From positions 1-64,000 of the forward strand of contig NZ_FOUJ01000003.1 in the NCBI RefSeq assembly GCF_900114835.1: a stretch of DNA of 64,000 bases. The letters are read 5' to 3'. Shown in pieces: positions 23,100 to 34,633 of this stretch. The notes below the pieces were generated by a model, which saw nothing but the letters and a program-made list of their open reading frames with translations, ran no database searches and was not told the origin of the DNA. Origin of the DNA: Methanolobus profundi. GTDB taxonomy: Archaea; Halobacteriota; Methanosarcinia; Methanosarcinales; Methanosarcinaceae. Both the position numbers and the translations under genes were made by a program. Positions within the stretch are counted from its first letter, which is position 1; each line of letters opens with the position of its first letter.

Positions 23100-24772
23100 C
23101 AGTATTCCCTCCTCTTTGGAGCGAAAGTACCGATATTCACTTCTTTGTATTCAAGCCGTGGCTCTTTATCCATAAAGGCAAGAGTATGCTTCAACCACTT
23201 CTCATCATCCCTTTCAAGATGGTCTGTCCGGTAATGTGCGCCTCTGCTCTCTTCCCTTGCAAGTGCTCCAAGAGTTATAATATATCCAAGTTCAAGCATC
23301 CCCTGTAATTCAAGAGCATTGACAAGCTCGAAATTAAAGACCTTTACATTGCTCTGGACCCGCAGCTCCAATGCCCTTTTTCTGAGATGCTTAATCTCTT
23401 TCAATGCATGTTCCAGTCCTTTTCGGTTCCTGAAGACACCAACATGTTCCTGCATTACCCTCTGAAGGTCATCCCTTATGGAAGCAAAGTTCTCACCCTC
23501 GCCGCCGATCATCCCTGATATCCTGTCCTCTTCCATCCTGAAAGCTTCCATGAGCTCATCTTCATCAGGTCTTGATACAGAACGTGCATATCCGACTGCA
23601 TCCATGCCTGCCCTCCTGCCAAAGACAACTGTATCCAGAAGTGAATTACCACCAAGACGGTTAGCACCATGCACACTGATGCAGGCACATTCCCCCACAG
23701 CATAAAGACCCGGCATCGGCGTTCTGCCATCCTTATCAGAGCTCACCCCACCCATGGAATAATGCTGGCCCGGCTGAACTGGTATTGGTTCCTTCACAGG
23801 GTCGATACCTGCAAAGTCAATGGATATCTGCCGGATACCCGGAAGACGCTCGTTGATCTTCTGCTTTCCAAGATGTGTAAGGTCAAGATGGACATAACCT
23901 TCTGGGAAGCCTCTGCCTTCATCTATCTCTTTCTGTATGGCCCTGGCAACGATATCCCTTGGTGCAAGTTCCATTGCATCCTTTGCATATCGCTCCATGA
24001 AACGCTCGTGTTCCCTGTTAAAAAGATAGCCACCCTCACCACGTGCACCTTCTGTTATCAGTATATTAGTACCCCACAAAGTAGTGGGATGGAACTGAAC
24101 GAATTCCATATCCTCCAACGGAACTCCGGCATTGTATGCCAGACTTATCCCAAAGCCCCTGTTTATTATGGCATTCGTAGACCTCTGGTAGATCCTGCCA
24201 TATCCGCCAGTGGCAAAGATCGTTGCTTTTGCACGAAAGACCTCCAGCTCAGAATCTGCCAGGTCCATTGCGATACAACCTGTACATTTGCCATTATCGG
24301 TAACAAGTTTTGTCACAAGACGTTCATTGTACACTTTGATCTTGTACCTGAGAACCTGCTCATATAGAGTGTGTAAAAGGTTATGTCCTGTCCTGTCCCC
24401 TGCAAAACACGTCCTTGGAAATCCTGCTCCTCCAAAAGGTCGCTGGGCTATCCTGCCATTCTCCTGTCTTGAGAAATTACAACCCCAGTTCTCCATCTCG
24501 ATAACCCTTTCAGGAGCTTCCTTACAAAGTACTTCAACCGTATCCTGATCAGCGAGGTAGTCGCTACCTTTCACAGTGTCAAATGCATGTCCCTCCCAGC
24601 TGTCATCAGAACCAAGCGATGCATTGATACCACCCTGTGCTGCACCGGAGTGACTTCTTATAGGATATACTTTGGAGATCACAGCAACATCAGCACCCAG
24701 TTTGTAAGCTTCAAGAGCTGCTCTGAGTCCGGCAAGTCCTCCGCCTATCACAATTATGTCGTGGTCTATCAT
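23099..24772 (-). CDS. sdhA: Succinate dehydrogenase/fumarate reductase flavoprotein subunit
   Basis: A 557-aa FAD protein. Visible are the Rossmann [13 protein letters not shown] motif, the FAD-attachment region [13 protein letters not shown] with the conserved His, the active-site stretch around [21 protein letters not shown], and [19 protein letters not shown]. The most likely use in an anaerobic methanogen is reduction of fumarate to succinate, but direction cannot be read from sequence. ATG at 24772 overlaps the upstream lyase stop by 4 bp (ATGA), so lyase, SdhA and SdhB form one operon. Confidence 0.93.
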
Positions 24773-26154
24773 TTTTTTACTCCCGTCAATTCCATGGGAT
24801 CAAGCAGATGCTCTACACCATGATCATCAAGTAACCCCATCTCGATAACCACTTCCTTTATAGTACGGCCTTCATTATGTGCCCGGTATGCTACCTCAGC
24901 AGCTTTGTCATATCCAATTACAGGAGCAAGTGATGTTGCGATCGCAAGACTGGAAGCAGCAAGTTCTGCACATCTTTCAGTATTGACAGTCAGCCCGGAA
25001 AGACACTTTCTGTTGAAAGATGAGATCGAACCGGATAGTATCCTGATAGAACCCAGTATATTGTGTGCCAGAAGTGGTGTGAATACATTGAGCTCAAGTT
25101 GTCCGGCCTGAGCGGCCATCATAATAGTGGTATCATTGCCCATCACCTGAAAACATGCCATGTTAAGCATTTCCGCCATTACGGGATTGACCTTTCCCGG
25201 CATTATAGATGATCCCGGCTGAACTGCCGGCAGATCCAGCTCACCCATGCCAGCCCTTGGACCACTTGAAAGCAGGCGAAGGTCATTTGCGATCTTGGTC
25301 AGGCTCACTGCAAGTCCCCTGAGTGCAGCAGAACAGGCAAGTATGGAGCCTGCAGCCTGTGTAGCCTCAAATGGATCTTCGGCCAGTCTGAAACCGATAC
25401 CTGTTATAGAGTTCATTTCCCTGATCGCGATCTTCGAAAAACCCTGTGGAGCATTCAGACCTGTACCAACTGCAGTTCCACCCATGTTCAATTCCAGCAG
25501 ACCGTCCACAGCTTCCAGTAAACGTTTCATGTCAAGTTCTATCATTCTGAAATATCCACTGAACTCCTGCCCCATTGTCAGCGGAACTGCATCCTGTAAG
25601 TGCGTTCTTCCGGGTTTGACAATTGACATGAGCCCGACCTTCTTCTCATCGAGAATAACAAGAAGTTCATCGATAGCAGGGAGCAGCGATGAGTAGACAG
25701 TTTCGACAGCTGCAATGTGAATAGCAGTATGTGTCGTGTCGTTGGAGGATTGGGACATGTTAACGTGGTCATTTGGATGGATGATATCATAGCGTCCCTT
25801 TTCATAGCCCATGATCTCAAGTGCTCTGTTGGCAATGACCTCGTTAGCGTTCATATTCTGTGATGTTCCTGCACCTGACTGGAAAGCATCTACCACGAAC
25901 TGGTCACTCAATTTCCCTTCTCTTACCTCATATGCAGCTTCGACCAGACTCTTGCCAATATGCGTGTCAAGCTTTCCCAGTTCCATATTTGCCTTTGCGG
26001 ATGCTATCTTTATAGCTGCCTGGGCCTTGATGAACTCAGCAGGTAATCGCTCACCACTTACCTGGAAATTATCCACAGCCCTTGCTGTCTGTGGACCATA
26101 ATAGACATCTTCCGGCACTTCCACCTCTCCAAGAGTGTCTTTTTCAAGTCTCAT
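24769..26154 (-). CDS. Fumarase class II/aspartase-family lyase
   Basis: A 461-aa lyase of the fumarase/aspartase superfamily, with the signature [12 protein letters not shown] in the catalytic loop. Several segments look more aspartase-like than fumarase-like: [22 protein letters not shown] and [14 protein letters not shown], which has Met where fumarases usually have Lys. It makes fumarate from either malate or aspartate. Being first in an operon with SdhAB, it would feed fumarate to the reductase. Most methanogens use the unrelated class I fumarase. Fumarase and aspartase cannot be separated firmly by eye. Confidence 0.8.
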
Positions 26155-26869: not shown

Positions 26870-27049
26870 ATGGCACCATGGGAATATGATATAAGGTCTG
26901 TCCGCTATGGAGAATGGGACAGCACGAAAGAAGATCTGAACGAGCTAGGCATGGATGGCTGGGAACTTATACGTTTTTCAGAGGATGTAGATGAGAACGG
27001 TAACATCAAAGCATTCTTCAAAAGGCCAGTCGATTGCCTGGAATGCTAG
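26870..27049 (+). CDS. DUF4177-like small protein
   Basis: A 59-aa protein: MAPWEYDIRS at the start, LNELGMDGWELIRF in the middle, AFFKRPVDCLEC at the end. The opening strand followed by a helix and the GWEL turn is the pattern of DUF4177-like proteins, whose function is unknown. A TTATATAAC element at about 26811-26819 is the likely promoter, with AAAGAGG about 9 nt before the ATG. It ends with two Cys. It lies downstream of a 260-bp gap in which no other gene is visible. Confidence 0.75.
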   Translation: MAPWEYDIRSVRYGEWDSTKEDLNELGMDGWELIRFSEDVDENGNIKAFFKRPVDCLEC

Positions 27050-29440: not shown

Positions 29441-29863
29441 ATGACTCAAACAGTCACAAATATGAACAATATACATATCCCGGAAGGTTACAGCCTCAGA
29501 AGGATCCAGTTCTATTTCTGGTTAGGAATGTTCTCGGCGATCTTTCTTAGACTAATAATAATAGCTGATTATTACAATGGTATATTGTCAAAAGCTCTGT
29601 TCTACCTGGGTGTTATAGGATACCTGGTGTTCTTTGCACACAGATACCACGTAGCAACACGCCGGGTAGGTGTTCTAAAGAACCTCGACCTACTTGGAAA
29701 GATAGAGAGCAGGACATCTTTGACAGAAGAGGAGTATCGCGGATTGGAATACATCATGTGGAGTCTCTCAGTCTCAAAGGAACGTATGAATTACCTGGTG
29801 ATATTTGCCTTCTCGGTAATAGCAATTGTATTATCACTGGCACTTGACCTGGGCCTTGTATAA
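29441..29863 (+). CDS. Small membrane protein of unknown function
   Basis: A 140-aa protein with hydrophobic segments at about 25-46, 50-68 and 113-138, and a cytosolic stretch containing KIESRTSLTEEEYRGLEYIMW. Family not recognised. AACAGGTAG lies about 6-14 nt before the ATG. It starts about 230 bp from the divergent kinase start and precedes the truncated corrinoid gene by 73 bp. Confidence 0.65.
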   Translation: MTQTVTNMNNIHIPEGYSLRRIQFYFWLGMFSAIFLRLIIIADYYNGILSKALFYLGVIGYLVFFAHRYHVATRRVGVLKNLDLLGKIESRTSLTEEEYRGLEYIMWSLSVSKERMNYLVIFAFSVIAIVLSLALDLGLV

Positions 29864-29936
29864 GAACAAGAAGAAATAACGATCAGAACGACACAAATAA
29901 AGAAAGAAGAACTACACCAAAGATCAGGTGAGATAT

Positions 29937-30245
29937 ATGAACCCAACAAAGGAAGAGATCATCGATAAGGCAAAGCATGCTGTAATGGATCTCGACGAAA
30001 GCGCAGTCGAAAGTATAGCCTATGAAGCTCTTGAAGCAGGCGTAAGTCCTGTAGAACTTATAGAACAGGGATTCATCGAAGGCATGAAAGCTGTAGGCGA
30101 CCTTTTTGAAGAAGGTAAGTCACAGCTCGCCCAGATATTCGAAGCCTCCCACATCGTGGAGTCAGGCATGAATGTGCTCAAGCCAACTATTATGGGTTCC
30201 AAAGATGAAGTATGCTGGTTCGGAAACCTCGTCGTTGGAATGTAA
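29937..30245 (+). pseudogene. Truncated methyltransferase corrinoid protein (cap domain only)
   Basis: A 102-aa frame matching the N-terminal four-helix cap domain of methylamine/methanol/methylthiol corrinoid proteins (MtmC/MtbC/MttC type, about 215 aa when complete): an opening EEIIDKAKHAVMDLDE, then VSPVELIEQGFIEGMKAVGDLFEEG and ASHIVESGMNVLKPTI. The normal next part is a cobalamin-binding Rossmann domain with DxHxxG. Here the frame turns into unrelated sequence (KDEVCWFGNL) and stops. I see no continuation in the other frames, and a terminator follows 20 bp later. ATG at 29937 has a good GGTGAG site, so the fragment may still be translated. Confidence 0.8.
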
Positions 30246-30264
30246 TACTACAAATAACAACATT

Positions 30265-30299
30265 TGTTCTGTCACTGACAGAACACTACCTCCTTTTTT
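30265..30299 (+). terminator. Terminator after the truncated corrinoid gene
   Basis: A perfect 10-bp stem (TGTTCTGTCA 30265-30274 with TGACAGAACA 30276-30285) followed by a T6 tract at 30294-30299. As RNA the central bases form the loop. This is the clearest terminator-like element in the window. Confidence 0.65.
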
Positions 30300-30590
30300 C
30301 TCCACATTTTTAATTGATCGGTCACAATAAGGCAGATCAGTATACATATAAAAAACTTCAGGGTCTCCCTTCTGTAGGGCAAACTTATTTATTTCAATGC
30401 GGGTTTTTATTCCCTAGTCTGAACACCCTGCGGACAGTTGACATCATGGTCAGCAAAACAGTTGATATCGGTAGGGAATTATTTGAATGGATAGGAATGC
30501 CACAGGCAAACGGTACTAACAATTCCGGCAGAATGGCCGGTCCTGATCTTATAGAATATCATTATCAAATTATATGTAACAGGTGACATT
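30300..30590. other. Leader region of the aconitase gene
   Basis: Part of a 345-bp stretch without a convincing gene. CATATAAAAAAC at about 30344-30355 is a possible TATA box. A CCGGC/GCCGG hairpin lies near 30524-30540. A GGTGAC ribosome binding site precedes the aconitase ATG. The 5' leader would be long, over 200 nt, if that promoter is used. Confidence 0.35.
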
Positions 30591-33374
30591 ATGACAAATG
30601 ACGATCTCAAAGATCCATTTGGATCCAAACAGACCATCAATATCGGTGACAAGAAGGTAAACCTCTATCGCTTGAAAAAGCTTGAAGAGCAGGGAATCAC
30701 CAACATTTCCAGATTACCTTACTCCATCAGGGTCTTGCTCGAAGCAGTATTAAGGAACGTGGACGGAAGGGTGATCACAGAGGAAGATGTGAAGAACCTG
30801 GCAAGCTGGAGTCCGAAAGGGGTTCTTGCAGTCGACATACCATTCACTCCTTCAAGGGTACTTATGCAGGACTTTACAGGAGTGCCTGCTGTTGTAGATA
30901 TTGCTGCTATAAGGTCAGCAACCCAGAGACTTGGTGGCGACCCATCGACCATCAATCCTGTGATCCCTGCAGATCTGGTCATCGACCACTCCATACAGGT
31001 AGATTACTACGGCACATCATATGCCCGTAACTGCAATGAGAAGTACGAGTTCCACCGCAACCAGGAAAGATATGAACTGCTCCACTGGGCACAGAATGCC
31101 TTTGACAACATGAGAGTGGTCCCACCTGCAAGCGGCATCATCCATCAGGTCAACCTTGAGTACCTTGCATCCGTGGTCCATCTCAAAGAAAAGAATGGCG
31201 AACTTGTAGCATATCCTGACACACTTGTAGGTACCGACTCACACACTACCATGATCAACGGACTTGGTGTCCTTGGTTGGGGTGTTGGTGGTATCGAGGC
31301 TGAAGCCGTAATGCTCGGTCAGCCATATTACATGCCTATCCCTGAAGTTGTAGGATTCAAGCTCACAGGAGAGCTCAAGGAAGGCGTATCATCCACCGAT
31401 CTGGTACTTACCGTTGTAGAGATGCTCAGGAAGCATGGTGTTGTCGGTAAGTTCGTAGAGTTCTACGGACCAGGATACAAGGCACTTGAACTCACAGAGA
31501 GGGCAGTACTTGCTAACATGGCACCTGAATACGGTGCTACAATGGGATTCTGTCCTGTTGATGAAGTTACACTTGCATATATGACAATGACAGGAAGAAA
31601 CGAGGAGCAGGTCAGCCTTGTCAGACAGTACTGCAAGGAACAGGGACTCTTCCTTGAGGACGATGCACCTGAACCGGAATTCACTTCAACACTTGAACTT
31701 GACATCAGCACAGTAACACCATGTCTTGCAGGACCAAAGAGACCTCAGGACCGTATACCTGTACAGGATATGTCAAGGGCATTCCACCAGACCATGAAGG
31801 ACGTATTCGCTTTAAAGAGCGGAAAGGCTCCTAATGGGGATGACGAAGATTACAGTCGCTGGCTCGGAGAAGGCGGATACAGTGTTTCAGAGATCACACA
31901 TCCACATCACACCGGCATCACAAAGATCAAATGTGCAGACGATGTCGTAGCAGTGACACACGGTTCTGTTGTTATCGCATCCATCACATCATGTACCAAC
32001 ACATCCAGCCCTGCACTTATGATCGGTGCAGGAATACTTGCAAAGAAAGCTGTTGAGAAGGGACTGAAGGTCAAGCCTTTCGTCAAGACAAGTCTGGCAC
32101 CTGGTTCCCGTGTAGTTACAGACTACCTTGAGAAAGCAGAACTTATGCCATACCTCGATGCACTTGGCTTCCACCTTGTAGGATATGGATGTCTTACCTG
32201 TATCGGAAACAGTGGCCCACTCAATGAAGCTGTCTCGAACAAGATAGAGGAAAAGGACCTGACAGTTGCAGCAGTTCTCAGTGGTAACAGGAACTTCGAA
32301 GGAAGGATCAACTCACAGATAAAGGCAAATTACCTTGCATCACCAATGCTTGTTGTTGCATATGCACTTGCAGGTAACGTTGACATCGATCTTATGAACG
32401 AGCCAATTGCCTGTGACCCTAACGGACAACCAGTATACCTTAAAGACATATGGCCAGGTAAAGAAGAGCTTGATGAGGCTATCAGTAAGGCTGTAACACC
32501 AGAGATGTTCATGGAACAGTACTCCAATGTATATCAGGGAACAGACCTCTGGAGAGAACTTGAAGCTCCTAAGGGACTGCTCTATGAGTGGGATAATGAC
32601 TCAACATACATCCAGGAACCACCTTTCTTCAAGGACTTCCCACTCGAGGTGGATGGTCTGGCAGACATTAAAGGAGCACGTGCTCTTGTAATGGTGGCTG
32701 ACAGTATAACCACCGACCACATTTCACCAGCTGGTTCAATTCCATCAAGCTACCCTGCAGGCCAGTACCTGATCTCAAAGGGCGTTGATGAGAAGAACTT
32801 CAACTCATACGGATCCAGGCGTGGTAACCACGAGGTCATGATGAGAGGAACATTCGGAAATGTCCGTCTCAAGAACAAGCTCGTTGGCAGCAAGGAAGGT
32901 TCATGGACCATACACCAGCCTGATAACGAGGAAATGCCGATCTACGATGCTGCTATGAAGTACGTGGAAGAAGGTACTCCACTTGTCGTTGTAGCAGGGA
33001 AAGAATACGGAACCGGTAGTTCACGTGACTGGGCTGCAAAGGGAACCCAGCTCCTTGGTATAAAGGCAGTTATTGCAGAATCATTCGAAAGGATACACCG
33101 CAGCAACCTTGTAGGTATGGGCGTTCTTCCACTCCAGTTCAAGGAAGGAGAATGTGCAGAGTGTCTCGGACTTACAGGAAAGGAAACTTTCGATATTACA
33201 GGAATAGACGAGCTCAAGCCATTCGGTGAGGTAACAGTTACCGCAAGATCGGAAGACGGTGCAGAAAAGACCTTCAATGTTGATGTTCGCCTGAACTCCG
33301 AGGTAGAGGTAGAGTATTACATGAACGGTGGAATACTTCACAAATTCCTGAGGGACAAAGTAAAGGGAGAATGA
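30591..33374 (+). CDS. acnA: Aconitate hydratase, AcnA type
   Basis: A 927-aa [4Fe-4S] enzyme that isomerises citrate to isocitrate. The cluster ligands are in SITSCTNTSSP and CLTCIGNSGPL. The substrate-binding GTDSHTTMINGLGVLGWGVG loop and the C-terminal swivel-domain GTGSSRDWAAKG are clear. It is the long IRP1/AcnA form typical of bacteria, not the short archaeal homoaconitase/IPM isomerase type. With citrate synthase next door it supplies the oxidative route to 2-oxoglutarate used by Methanosarcinales. A terminator hairpin overlaps its stop codon. Confidence 0.96.
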   Translation: MTNDDLKDPFGSKQTINIGDKKVNLYRLKKLEEQGITNISRLPYSIRVLLEAVLRNVDGRVITEEDVKNLASWSPKGVLAVDIPFTPSRVLMQDFTGVPAVVDIAAIRSATQRLGGDPSTINPVIPADLVIDHSIQVDYYGTSYARNCNEKYEFHRNQERYELLHWAQNAFDNMRVVPPASGIIHQVNLEYLASVVHLKEKNGELVAYPDTLVGTDSHTTMINGLGVLGWGVGGIEAEAVMLGQPYYMPIPEVVGFKLTGELKEGVSSTDLVLTVVEMLRKHGVVGKFVEFYGPGYKALELTERAVLANMAPEYGATMGFCPVDEVTLAYMTMTGRNEEQVSLVRQYCKEQGLFLEDDAPEPEFTSTLELDISTVTPCLAGPKRPQDRIPVQDMSRAFHQTMKDVFALKSGKAPNGDDEDYSRWLGEGGYSVSEITHPHHTGITKIKCADDVVAVTHGSVVIASITSCTNTSSPALMIGAGILAKKAVEKGLKVKPFVKTSLAPGSRVVTDYLEKAELMPYLDALGFHLVGYGCLTCIGNSGPLNEAVSNKIEEKDLTVAAVLSGNRNFEGRINSQIKANYLASPMLVVAYALAGNVDIDLMNEPIACDPNGQPVYLKDIWPGKEELDEAISKAVTPEMFMEQYSNVYQGTDLWRELEAPKGLLYEWDNDSTYIQEPPFFKDFPLEVDGLADIKGARALVMVADSITTDHISPAGSIPSSYPAGQYLISKGVDEKNFNSYGSRRGNHEVMMRGTFGNVRLKNKLVGSKEGSWTIHQPDNEEMPIYDAAMKYVEEGTPLVVVAGKEYGTGSSRDWAAKGTQLLGIKAVIAESFERIHRSNLVGMGVLPLQFKEGECAECLGLTGKETFDITGIDELKPFGEVTVTARSEDGAEKTFNVDVRLNSEVEVEYYMNGGILHKFLRDKVKGE

Positions 33375-33393: not shown

Positions 33394-33511
33394 GTACACG
33401 GTTGTTCATACATTAAAATAATATAATTATATTGTGGCGCTGGAAAGCCAGCAAAGTATATATATGGACAACCGAAAGGTATTATTGAACATATTTTAAT
33501 AAAACGTGTAC
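33394..33511 (+). promoter_or_regulatory. Citrate synthase promoter with nested inverted repeats
   Basis: The 161-bp gap before citrate synthase holds TATA-like elements (AATAATATAATTATATT at about 33417-33433 and GTATATATATGG at about 33456-33467) and two inverted-repeat pairs: GTACACG (33394-33400) with CGTGTAC (33505-33511), and CGGTTGTTCAT (33399-33409) with ATGGACAACCG (33464-33474, one G-T mismatch). A small CTGG/CCAG hairpin sits between them. This looks like operators or a structured leader. Confidence 0.45.
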
Positions 33512-33535
33512 TTCGATCCATCGGGGGATTTTTAT

Positions 33536-34633
33536 ATGGAAGAGATGAAAAAAGGCCTAGAAGGCGTAGTAGCTTTGGATACCAAAATATCCTATATTGA
33601 TGGTATTCAGGGGATCCTTATGTATAGGGGCGTCAAGATAGAGGATCTTGTTGACCTGCCTTATGATGCGGTTTCCTACCTGCTTATCAACGGAAAGATC
33701 CCCAACGAATCTGAATTATCTGAATATTCACAGGAATTAAAGGACAACCGTATCATCAATGGTAAACAGATAGATGTCCTGAAGGAATTCGATTTTGGTG
33801 TTGAGGCTCTTGATGGCCTTAGAACGGCTATTTCCTGCACAGCACATTTTGATCTTGAGAATAACCATCATTCTCCTGACGCTAATAAGAACAAGACCAT
33901 AAAGCTTGTTGCAAAGTTCCCAACTATTGTTGCGGCTCTGCACCGTGCAAGTTTTGATAAGGAACCCATAGAACCAAAGGACGATCTGTCCCATGGTGCA
34001 AATTTCCTTTACATGCTCACTGGAAAGATACCTACTGATCTTGAAGCTGAAGCAATGGAAAAGGATCTCATACTTAGTGCAGAACATGAACTGAACCCAT
34101 CAACATTTTCATTGAGGATCGCAGCATCCACTTTATCTGATCTTTACTCTGCAGTCATATGTGGCCTTTGTACTCTCAAAGGACCATTGCACGGAGGAGC
34201 CAGAAAAGGTGTAATGGACATGCTTGATGAAGTTGGGAACATCGAAAATGCAAGACCGTATGTTCTTAACAAGCTTGAAAGAAAAGAGAAGATAATGGGA
34301 TTCGGGCATCGTGTTTACAAGACATATGATCCAAGGGCAAGGATATACAAGGACGTTGCCAGAAGATTATCAATAGAGAATGGCGATACATCCTGGTTCG
34401 ACCTTGCAGAAGAACTTGAGAACATCCTGTATCATGAATTTGTGGAGATCAGGGGAAAGCCGATCTATCCTAACGTAGATTTCTATTCGGCAGTTGTTTA
34501 CAAGTACCTGAACATACCAGCTGAACTTGCAACATCCATATTCGCAATGGGCAGAGTATCAGGATGGATAGCTCACTGCATGGAACAATATGCGGACAAT
34601 AGAGTGATAAGGCCAAGGGCACATTTTGTCTAG
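33536..34633 (+). CDS. gltA: Citrate synthase
   Basis: A 365-aa enzyme condensing oxaloacetate and acetyl-CoA. The catalytic residues are visible: His in LKGPLHGGARKG, His in IMGFGHRVYKTYDPRA, and Asp in YPNVDFYSAVVY. The size matches the short dimeric archaeal and Gram-positive type. ATG at 33536 is supported by a GGGGGATT site; the GTG at 33506 would include it. Together with the adjacent aconitase it starts 2-oxoglutarate and glutamate synthesis. Its closeness to the 2-methylcitrate synthases means a side activity cannot be excluded. Confidence 0.94.
   Translation: MEEMKKGLEGVVALDTKISYIDGIQGILMYRGVKIEDLVDLPYDAVSYLLINGKIPNESELSEYSQELKDNRIINGKQIDVLKEFDFGVEALDGLRTAISCTAHFDLENNHHSPDANKNKTIKLVAKFPTIVAALHRASFDKEPIEPKDDLSHGANFLYMLTGKIPTDLEAEAMEKDLILSAEHELNPSTFSLRIAASTLSDLYSAVICGLCTLKGPLHGGARKGVMDMLDEVGNIENARPYVLNKLERKEKIMGFGHRVYKTYDPRARIYKDVARRLSIENGDTSWFDLAEELENILYHEFVEIRGKPIYPNVDFYSAVVYKYLNIPAELATSIFAMGRVSGWIAHCMEQYADNRVIRPRAHFV

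What the first reader, a model, noticed from the sequence alone, without database searches (positions are those of the whole stretch)
29937..30245. Orphan cap domain of a methyltransferase corrinoid protein
The reading frame matches the N-terminal helical domain of MtmC/MtbC-type proteins, then diverges and stops at 102 aa, before any cobalamin-binding DxHxxG. It keeps a good ribosome binding site and has a clear terminator, so it may be a recent pseudogene or a standalone small protein. Neighbouring methyltransferase genes are absent.
Basis: partly seen in the sequence, partly recalled or inferred. Interest (0 to 1): 0.6.

Follow-up and report, generated by a model that had tools for sequence, protein, structure and literature searches.

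The report
Free-standing cap domains without B12
Methanolobus archaea carry a conserved family of small proteins that are only the "lid" half of a vitamin-B12 methyl-carrier protein; this one is not a broken gene but a maintained stand-alone protein, probably a partner or regulator of methyl-transfer enzymes.

Summary
The ORF at 29937-30245 is real: 102 aa, a complete PF02607 cap domain most like trimethylamine corrinoid protein MttC (AF2 model vs 7xcn: TM 0.82, 0.9 Å). It is not a recent pseudogene. The genome has two more cap-only paralogues (105 aa, 41-43% identical), and cap-only proteins occur in all 27 Methanolobus genomes searched (66 copies, 64 without an internal stop) and in 4 genomes of a second genus of the family, but not elsewhere among 238 genomes of the class at that threshold. 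Pairwise dN/dS is 0.05-0.12 in the window's orthologues; length, start, ribosome-binding site, C-terminal FGNLVVGM and a covarying terminator hairpin are conserved. No B12-domain remainder lies downstream. All 60 stand-alone caps lack the [FY]LP motif that is invariant in 29/29 full-length corrinoid proteins; a fourth paralogue (cap plus degenerate core without DxHxxG) lacks it too. The window copy is paired with a 140-aa membrane protein even where surroundings are rearranged; another paralogue sits near a second mtaA. Best reading: a corrinoid-free cap family, kept as a protein-protein module that modulates methyltransferases or corrinoid proteins in trans. Existence and selection are shown; the mechanism is inferred and unproven.

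The parts
29937..30245 (+). capA: stand-alone cap-domain protein, 102 aa (PF02607 only)
29926..29931 (+). ribosome-binding site AGGTGA, conserved as (A)GGTGA in orthologues
30105..30137 (+). codons for residues F57-I67: position of the corrinoid-facing loop; [FY]LP of corrinoid proteins reads QLA here (Q63-A65)
   Evidence: the MetH contact residues used for comparison are from memory
30219..30242 (+). C-terminal FGNLVVGM, conserved in group A; matches linker/first strand of the lost B12 domain
30265..30285 (+). terminator-like hairpin followed by T-rich tract, compensatory changes in orthologues
29441..29863 (+). 140-aa membrane protein gene, constant upstream neighbour of capA (73-bp gap)
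   Evidence: membrane nature read from hydrophobic segments, no Pfam match

Best explanation
Shown: the ORF is a functional gene (by selection) for a stand-alone cap domain related to MttC-like methylamine corrinoid proteins but without the B12-binding half, one of several paralogues in Methanolobus. Inferred: it no longer carries a corrinoid but keeps the cap fold and works as a protein-protein module in trans, docking where a corrinoid protein's cap docks (on an MT1 such as MttB, on an MT2 such as MtaA, or over the corrinoid of another carrier), so tuning or chaperoning methyl transfer. The window copy may be tethered to, or signal to, the 140-aa membrane protein made from the gene just upstream.
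For: Intact ORF with dN/dS 0.05-0.12; cap-only copies in 27/27 genus genomes with a clear score gap (111 bits and above against 105 and below) to full-length proteins; AF2 model matches the MttC cap, TM 0.82, rmsd 0.9. In the MttB-MttC crystal structure the cap, with loops of the core domain, makes the main contacts with the MttB dimerization loop (PMC9842639), so an isolated cap has a plausible docking site. [FY]LP absent in 60/60 stand-alone and 9/9 degenerate proteins, present in 29/29 full-length, while F57/L64/I67 and the scaffold are kept. capC lies near a second mtaA in most Methanolobus loci, and capD directly precedes mtaA in G014. Membrane gene-capA pair kept across rearrangements. 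Precedent: small protein MtrR interacts with the MtrA subunit of the Mtr methyltransferase and affects its activity in M. mazei (PMC13370731).
Against: No interaction, expression or phenotype data. The window copy itself is not beside methyltransferase genes. The 140-aa membrane gene occurs widely in the order without capA, and capA is lost or decayed in a few Methanolobus, so neither needs the other strictly. Other methylotrophic genera of the family have full-length corrinoid proteins but no stand-alone caps at the threshold used, so the protein is not needed for methylotrophy as such. The mtaA linkage is seen for two groups only and could be chance.
Confidence: 0.45

Rival explanations
1. 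Recent pseudogene: a truncated mttC-like gene still carrying its ribosome-binding site and terminator.
For: Stops exactly where the B12 domain would begin; a few species do show decayed copies (internal TGA in G004, TAG in G064, frameshift in G069, C-terminal remnants only in G070 and G075).
Against: Same length and end in orthologues, dN/dS 0.05-0.12, three diverged paralogues, no B12 remainder.
Confidence: 0.02
2. Partner or sensor domain of the 140-aa membrane protein, with no present role in methyl transfer (a repurposed helical scaffold).
For: Constant pairing upstream of capA, even in G064 and G076 where the other neighbours differ; the corrinoid-facing [FY]LP is absent.
Against: Paralogues B, C and D lie elsewhere without that membrane gene; the membrane gene exists without capA in other genera.
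Confidence: 0.25
3. Trans-acting lid that binds the upper face of a corrinoid held by another protein, protecting or parking it.
For: Positions equivalent to the MetH cap residues F708/L715/V718 (from memory; ungapped alignment to 1bmt) stay F/L/I in most stand-alone caps.
Against: [FY]LP is absent in all; those three positions may simply be helix-core residues.
Confidence: 0.15

Closest known systems
Cap domain of trimethylamine corrinoid protein MttC (PDB 7xcn)
   Same: Fold and length of the helical cap (MttC residues 2-84), 42-45% identity, linker aligned to the start of the core domain
   Different: No B12-binding core, no DxHxxG, [FY]LP motif absent, gene not beside an MT1 gene
PF02607 cap of methionine synthase MetH (1bmt) and of MtmC (3ezx)
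   Same: Same fold (TM 0.73 and 0.76), hydrophobic cap positions mostly kept
   Different: There fused to a cobalamin-binding domain
Small regulatory proteins of methanogen enzymes (MtrR on Mtr; sP36 on ammonium transport)
   Same: Small free proteins that modulate a large enzyme or transporter (works-like comparison only)
   Different: No sequence relation claimed; MtrR has 49 aa and is not described as a cap domain
Split methionine synthase of Phaeobacter inhibens (PMC5764234)
   Same: MetH modules encoded as separate proteins
   Different: There cap and B12 domain stay together in one protein

Membership tests
PF02607 (B12-binding_2, cap domain) | Scores above the gathering cut-off over the full model | tested here: met
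   69.4 bits vs 23, model positions 2-74 of 74
Methyltransferase cognate corrinoid protein (TIGR02370, MttC/MtbC/MtmC type) | Cap plus B12-binding core with DxHxxG | tested here: not met
   62 bits vs cut-off 215.3, only positions 1-78 of 197; no core in any frame downstream
Methyltransferase cognate corrinoid protein (TIGR02370, MttC/MtbC/MtmC type) | [FY]LP motif of the cap (29/29 in the full-length set) | tested here: not met
   QLA in the window protein; 0/60 stand-alone caps
Methyltransferase cognate corrinoid protein (TIGR02370, MttC/MtbC/MtmC type) | Gene beside its cognate MT1 methyltransferase | tested here: not met
   Neighbours are a membrane protein gene and aconitase
Pseudogene of a corrinoid protein | Relaxed selection or disrupted frame | tested here: not met
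   Intact in orthologues, dN/dS 0.05-0.12
CarH/LitR-type B12 photoreceptor regulator | MerR-type DNA-binding domain plus cap plus B12 domain | tested here: not met
   Only the cap domain found by Pfam and NCBIfam
Corrinoid or methyltransferase binding by this protein | Physical interaction | not testable with these tools
   Needs biochemistry

The most novel reading that the evidence does not exclude
Methanolobus has evolved a multi-copy family of corrinoid-free 'decoy' or adaptor caps, derived from one MttC-like ancestor by losing the B12 domain, that regulate methylotrophic methyltransferases in trans: a layer of control in methanogenesis for which I found no report.
Probability: 0.3. Interest if true: 0.75.

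Novelty: new variant of a known kind. Interest (0 to 1): 0.5.

Why it matters
Cap domains are known as built-in lids that shield or release a corrinoid cofactor. A conserved family of free lids without cofactor or core would mean the lid has a separate, selected function, and it gives a ready set of small proteins with which to test how methanogens control the flow of methyl groups from methylamines, methanol and dimethylsulphide to methane.

Tried and rejected
Frame-shifted or downstream B12-domain remainder: none. Plasmid-borne relatives: matches are metH, an unannotated stretch of the same kind, or a corrinoid protein. Pfam identity for the upstream membrane protein: none. Literature for stand-alone PF02607 proteins: nothing relevant found. 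A first terminator pair map was mis-registered and redone. Modelling the degenerate cap-plus-core paralogue gave confidence only for its cap. The MttB contact residues of the MttC cap are in a supplementary table that could not be read, so conservation was not mapped on that interface.

Full report
Observation. The ORF at 29937-30245 encodes 102 aa with a full-length PF02607 match (E 2.9e-19) and no cobalamin-binding core. The start is fixed by an AGGTGA site at 29926-29931, conserved in orthologues as (A)GGTGA upstream of the ATG. A hairpin at 30265-30285 followed by a T-rich tract (z -3.9) is kept in orthologues with compensatory changes: 81% of cells pair against at most 50% when the partner is slid, and 6 cells change on both sides.

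Not a pseudogene. A search of the window's own genome found 13 places related to the cap. Two are further cap-only ORFs of 105 aa, 41-43% identical, ending like the window protein just after FGN(L/I). Searching 27 genomes of the genus gave 66 cap-only copies, one to four per genome; 64 have no internal stop, one has a TGA (G004) and one a TAG (G064). Named relatives carrying the window orthologue include Methanolobus vulcani, M. bombayensis and M. psychrotolerans, hence the genus name. In 238 genomes of the class, cap-only proteins above the threshold occur only in this genus and in four genomes of genus g14 of the same family; from memory of the chromosome length, g14 may be Methanomethylovorans (unverified). 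There is a clean gap between the lowest stand-alone score (111 bits) and the best full-length protein (105 bits). Pairwise dN/dS within orthologue groups A, B and C is 0.02-0.17, and 0.05-0.12 for the window's group. The core domain of the genome's own MttC finds nothing in the 900 bp around the ORF in any frame.

Anatomy. The AlphaFold2 model (pLDDT 86) is the helical cap plus an added low-confidence C-terminal helix. Its best solved matches are the MttC cap in the MttB-MttC complex (TM 0.82, rmsd 0.9, 45% identity) and MtmC. Comparing 60 stand-alone caps with 29 full-length corrinoid proteins, the motif [FY]LP (F or Y, then P two residues on) is present in 29/29 full-length and 0/60 stand-alone proteins. 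The 60 include the same gene fetched in overlapping loci and close orthologues, so they are not 60 independent losses. The three positions that in MetH (F708, L715, V718, recalled from memory and placed by the ungapped alignment to 1bmt) touch the cobalamin remain F/Y, L/I/M and I/V/M. Most stand-alone caps instead share GF(I/V)EGM(K/R) in helix 3 and the FGN tail.

A fourth, related family. Group E, beside isocitrate dehydrogenase and a 98-aa coiled-coil-like gene in both genera, is a cap plus a core that has lost DxHxxG and [FY]LP (0/9). In a maximum-likelihood tree of the cap, the stand-alone groups and the Methanolobus E proteins form a clade with ultrafast bootstrap 96, apart from the full-length corrinoid proteins. 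With 85 columns and a midpoint root this is moderate evidence for one corrinoid-less ancestor.

Context. Group A, the window's group, follows a 140-aa membrane protein gene with a gap of about 70 bp and usually precedes aconitase and citrate synthase. In G064 and G076 the other neighbours differ but the pair stays. The membrane gene is widespread in the order without a cap gene; in G069, G070 and G075 the cap gene beside it is frameshifted or reduced to a fragment, and in G004 none is found. Group C stands upstream of a TPR gene, a DUF7544 gene and maf, within about 2-4.5 kb of an mtaA in most loci; this genome's other mtaA lies with mtaC-type and other methanol genes on contig C11. In other genera the closest mtaA orthologue is far from the DUF7544 gene. 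In G014 the group D gene directly precedes mtaA.

Mechanism. What is shown: a maintained cap protein family without a B12-binding domain. What is inferred: a protein-protein role in methyl transfer. In the MttB-MttC structure the cap, with loops of the core, makes the main contact with the MttB dimerization loop (PMC9842639), so a cap without a cofactor could occupy that site; linkage of two groups to mtaA points the same way, and M. mazei offers a precedent for a small protein acting on a methyltransferase (PMC13370731). A role tied only to the membrane partner is the main rival. Neither has been tested.

Verdict. The finding is sound and more interesting than 'fragment': a conserved stand-alone cap family, for which I found no description in the papers searched.

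Noticed in passing
window 26870-27049 (+): 59-aa ORF matches NCBIfam NF053529 Sp36 family (E 5e-24), the small protein reported to inhibit ammonium transport in M. mazei (PMC10714827); it is a frequent upstream neighbour of the capA locus in Methanolobus.
   Followed up: partly
window 30314-30586 (+): 90-aa ORF before aconitase is probably spurious: in G018 only the stretch reading YLFQCGFL(F/Y)PS is kept, which looks like a conserved promoter or leader of the aconitase gene.
   Followed up: no
L054 (G030), between capA and aconitase: A 432-aa gene whose C-terminal part looks TIR-like by eye is inserted here in one species only.
   Followed up: no
L070 (G014), L115 (G062): Group A caps with a C-terminal extension of about 20 aa, mostly ending in YCC; in G062 three such copies lie within about 4.5 kb.
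   Followed up: no
L075 5845-6519 in gene orientation (this genome, contig C16) and L076-L079, L081-L084: Cap plus degenerate B12-like domain without DxHxxG, conserved between isocitrate dehydrogenase and a 98-aa coiled-coil-like gene in two genera.
   Followed up: partly
window 24769-26154 (-), 30591-33374 (+), 33506-34633 (+): Fumarase-family lyase, aconitase-like and citrate-synthase-like genes (read from sequence) cluster around the finding.
   Followed up: no
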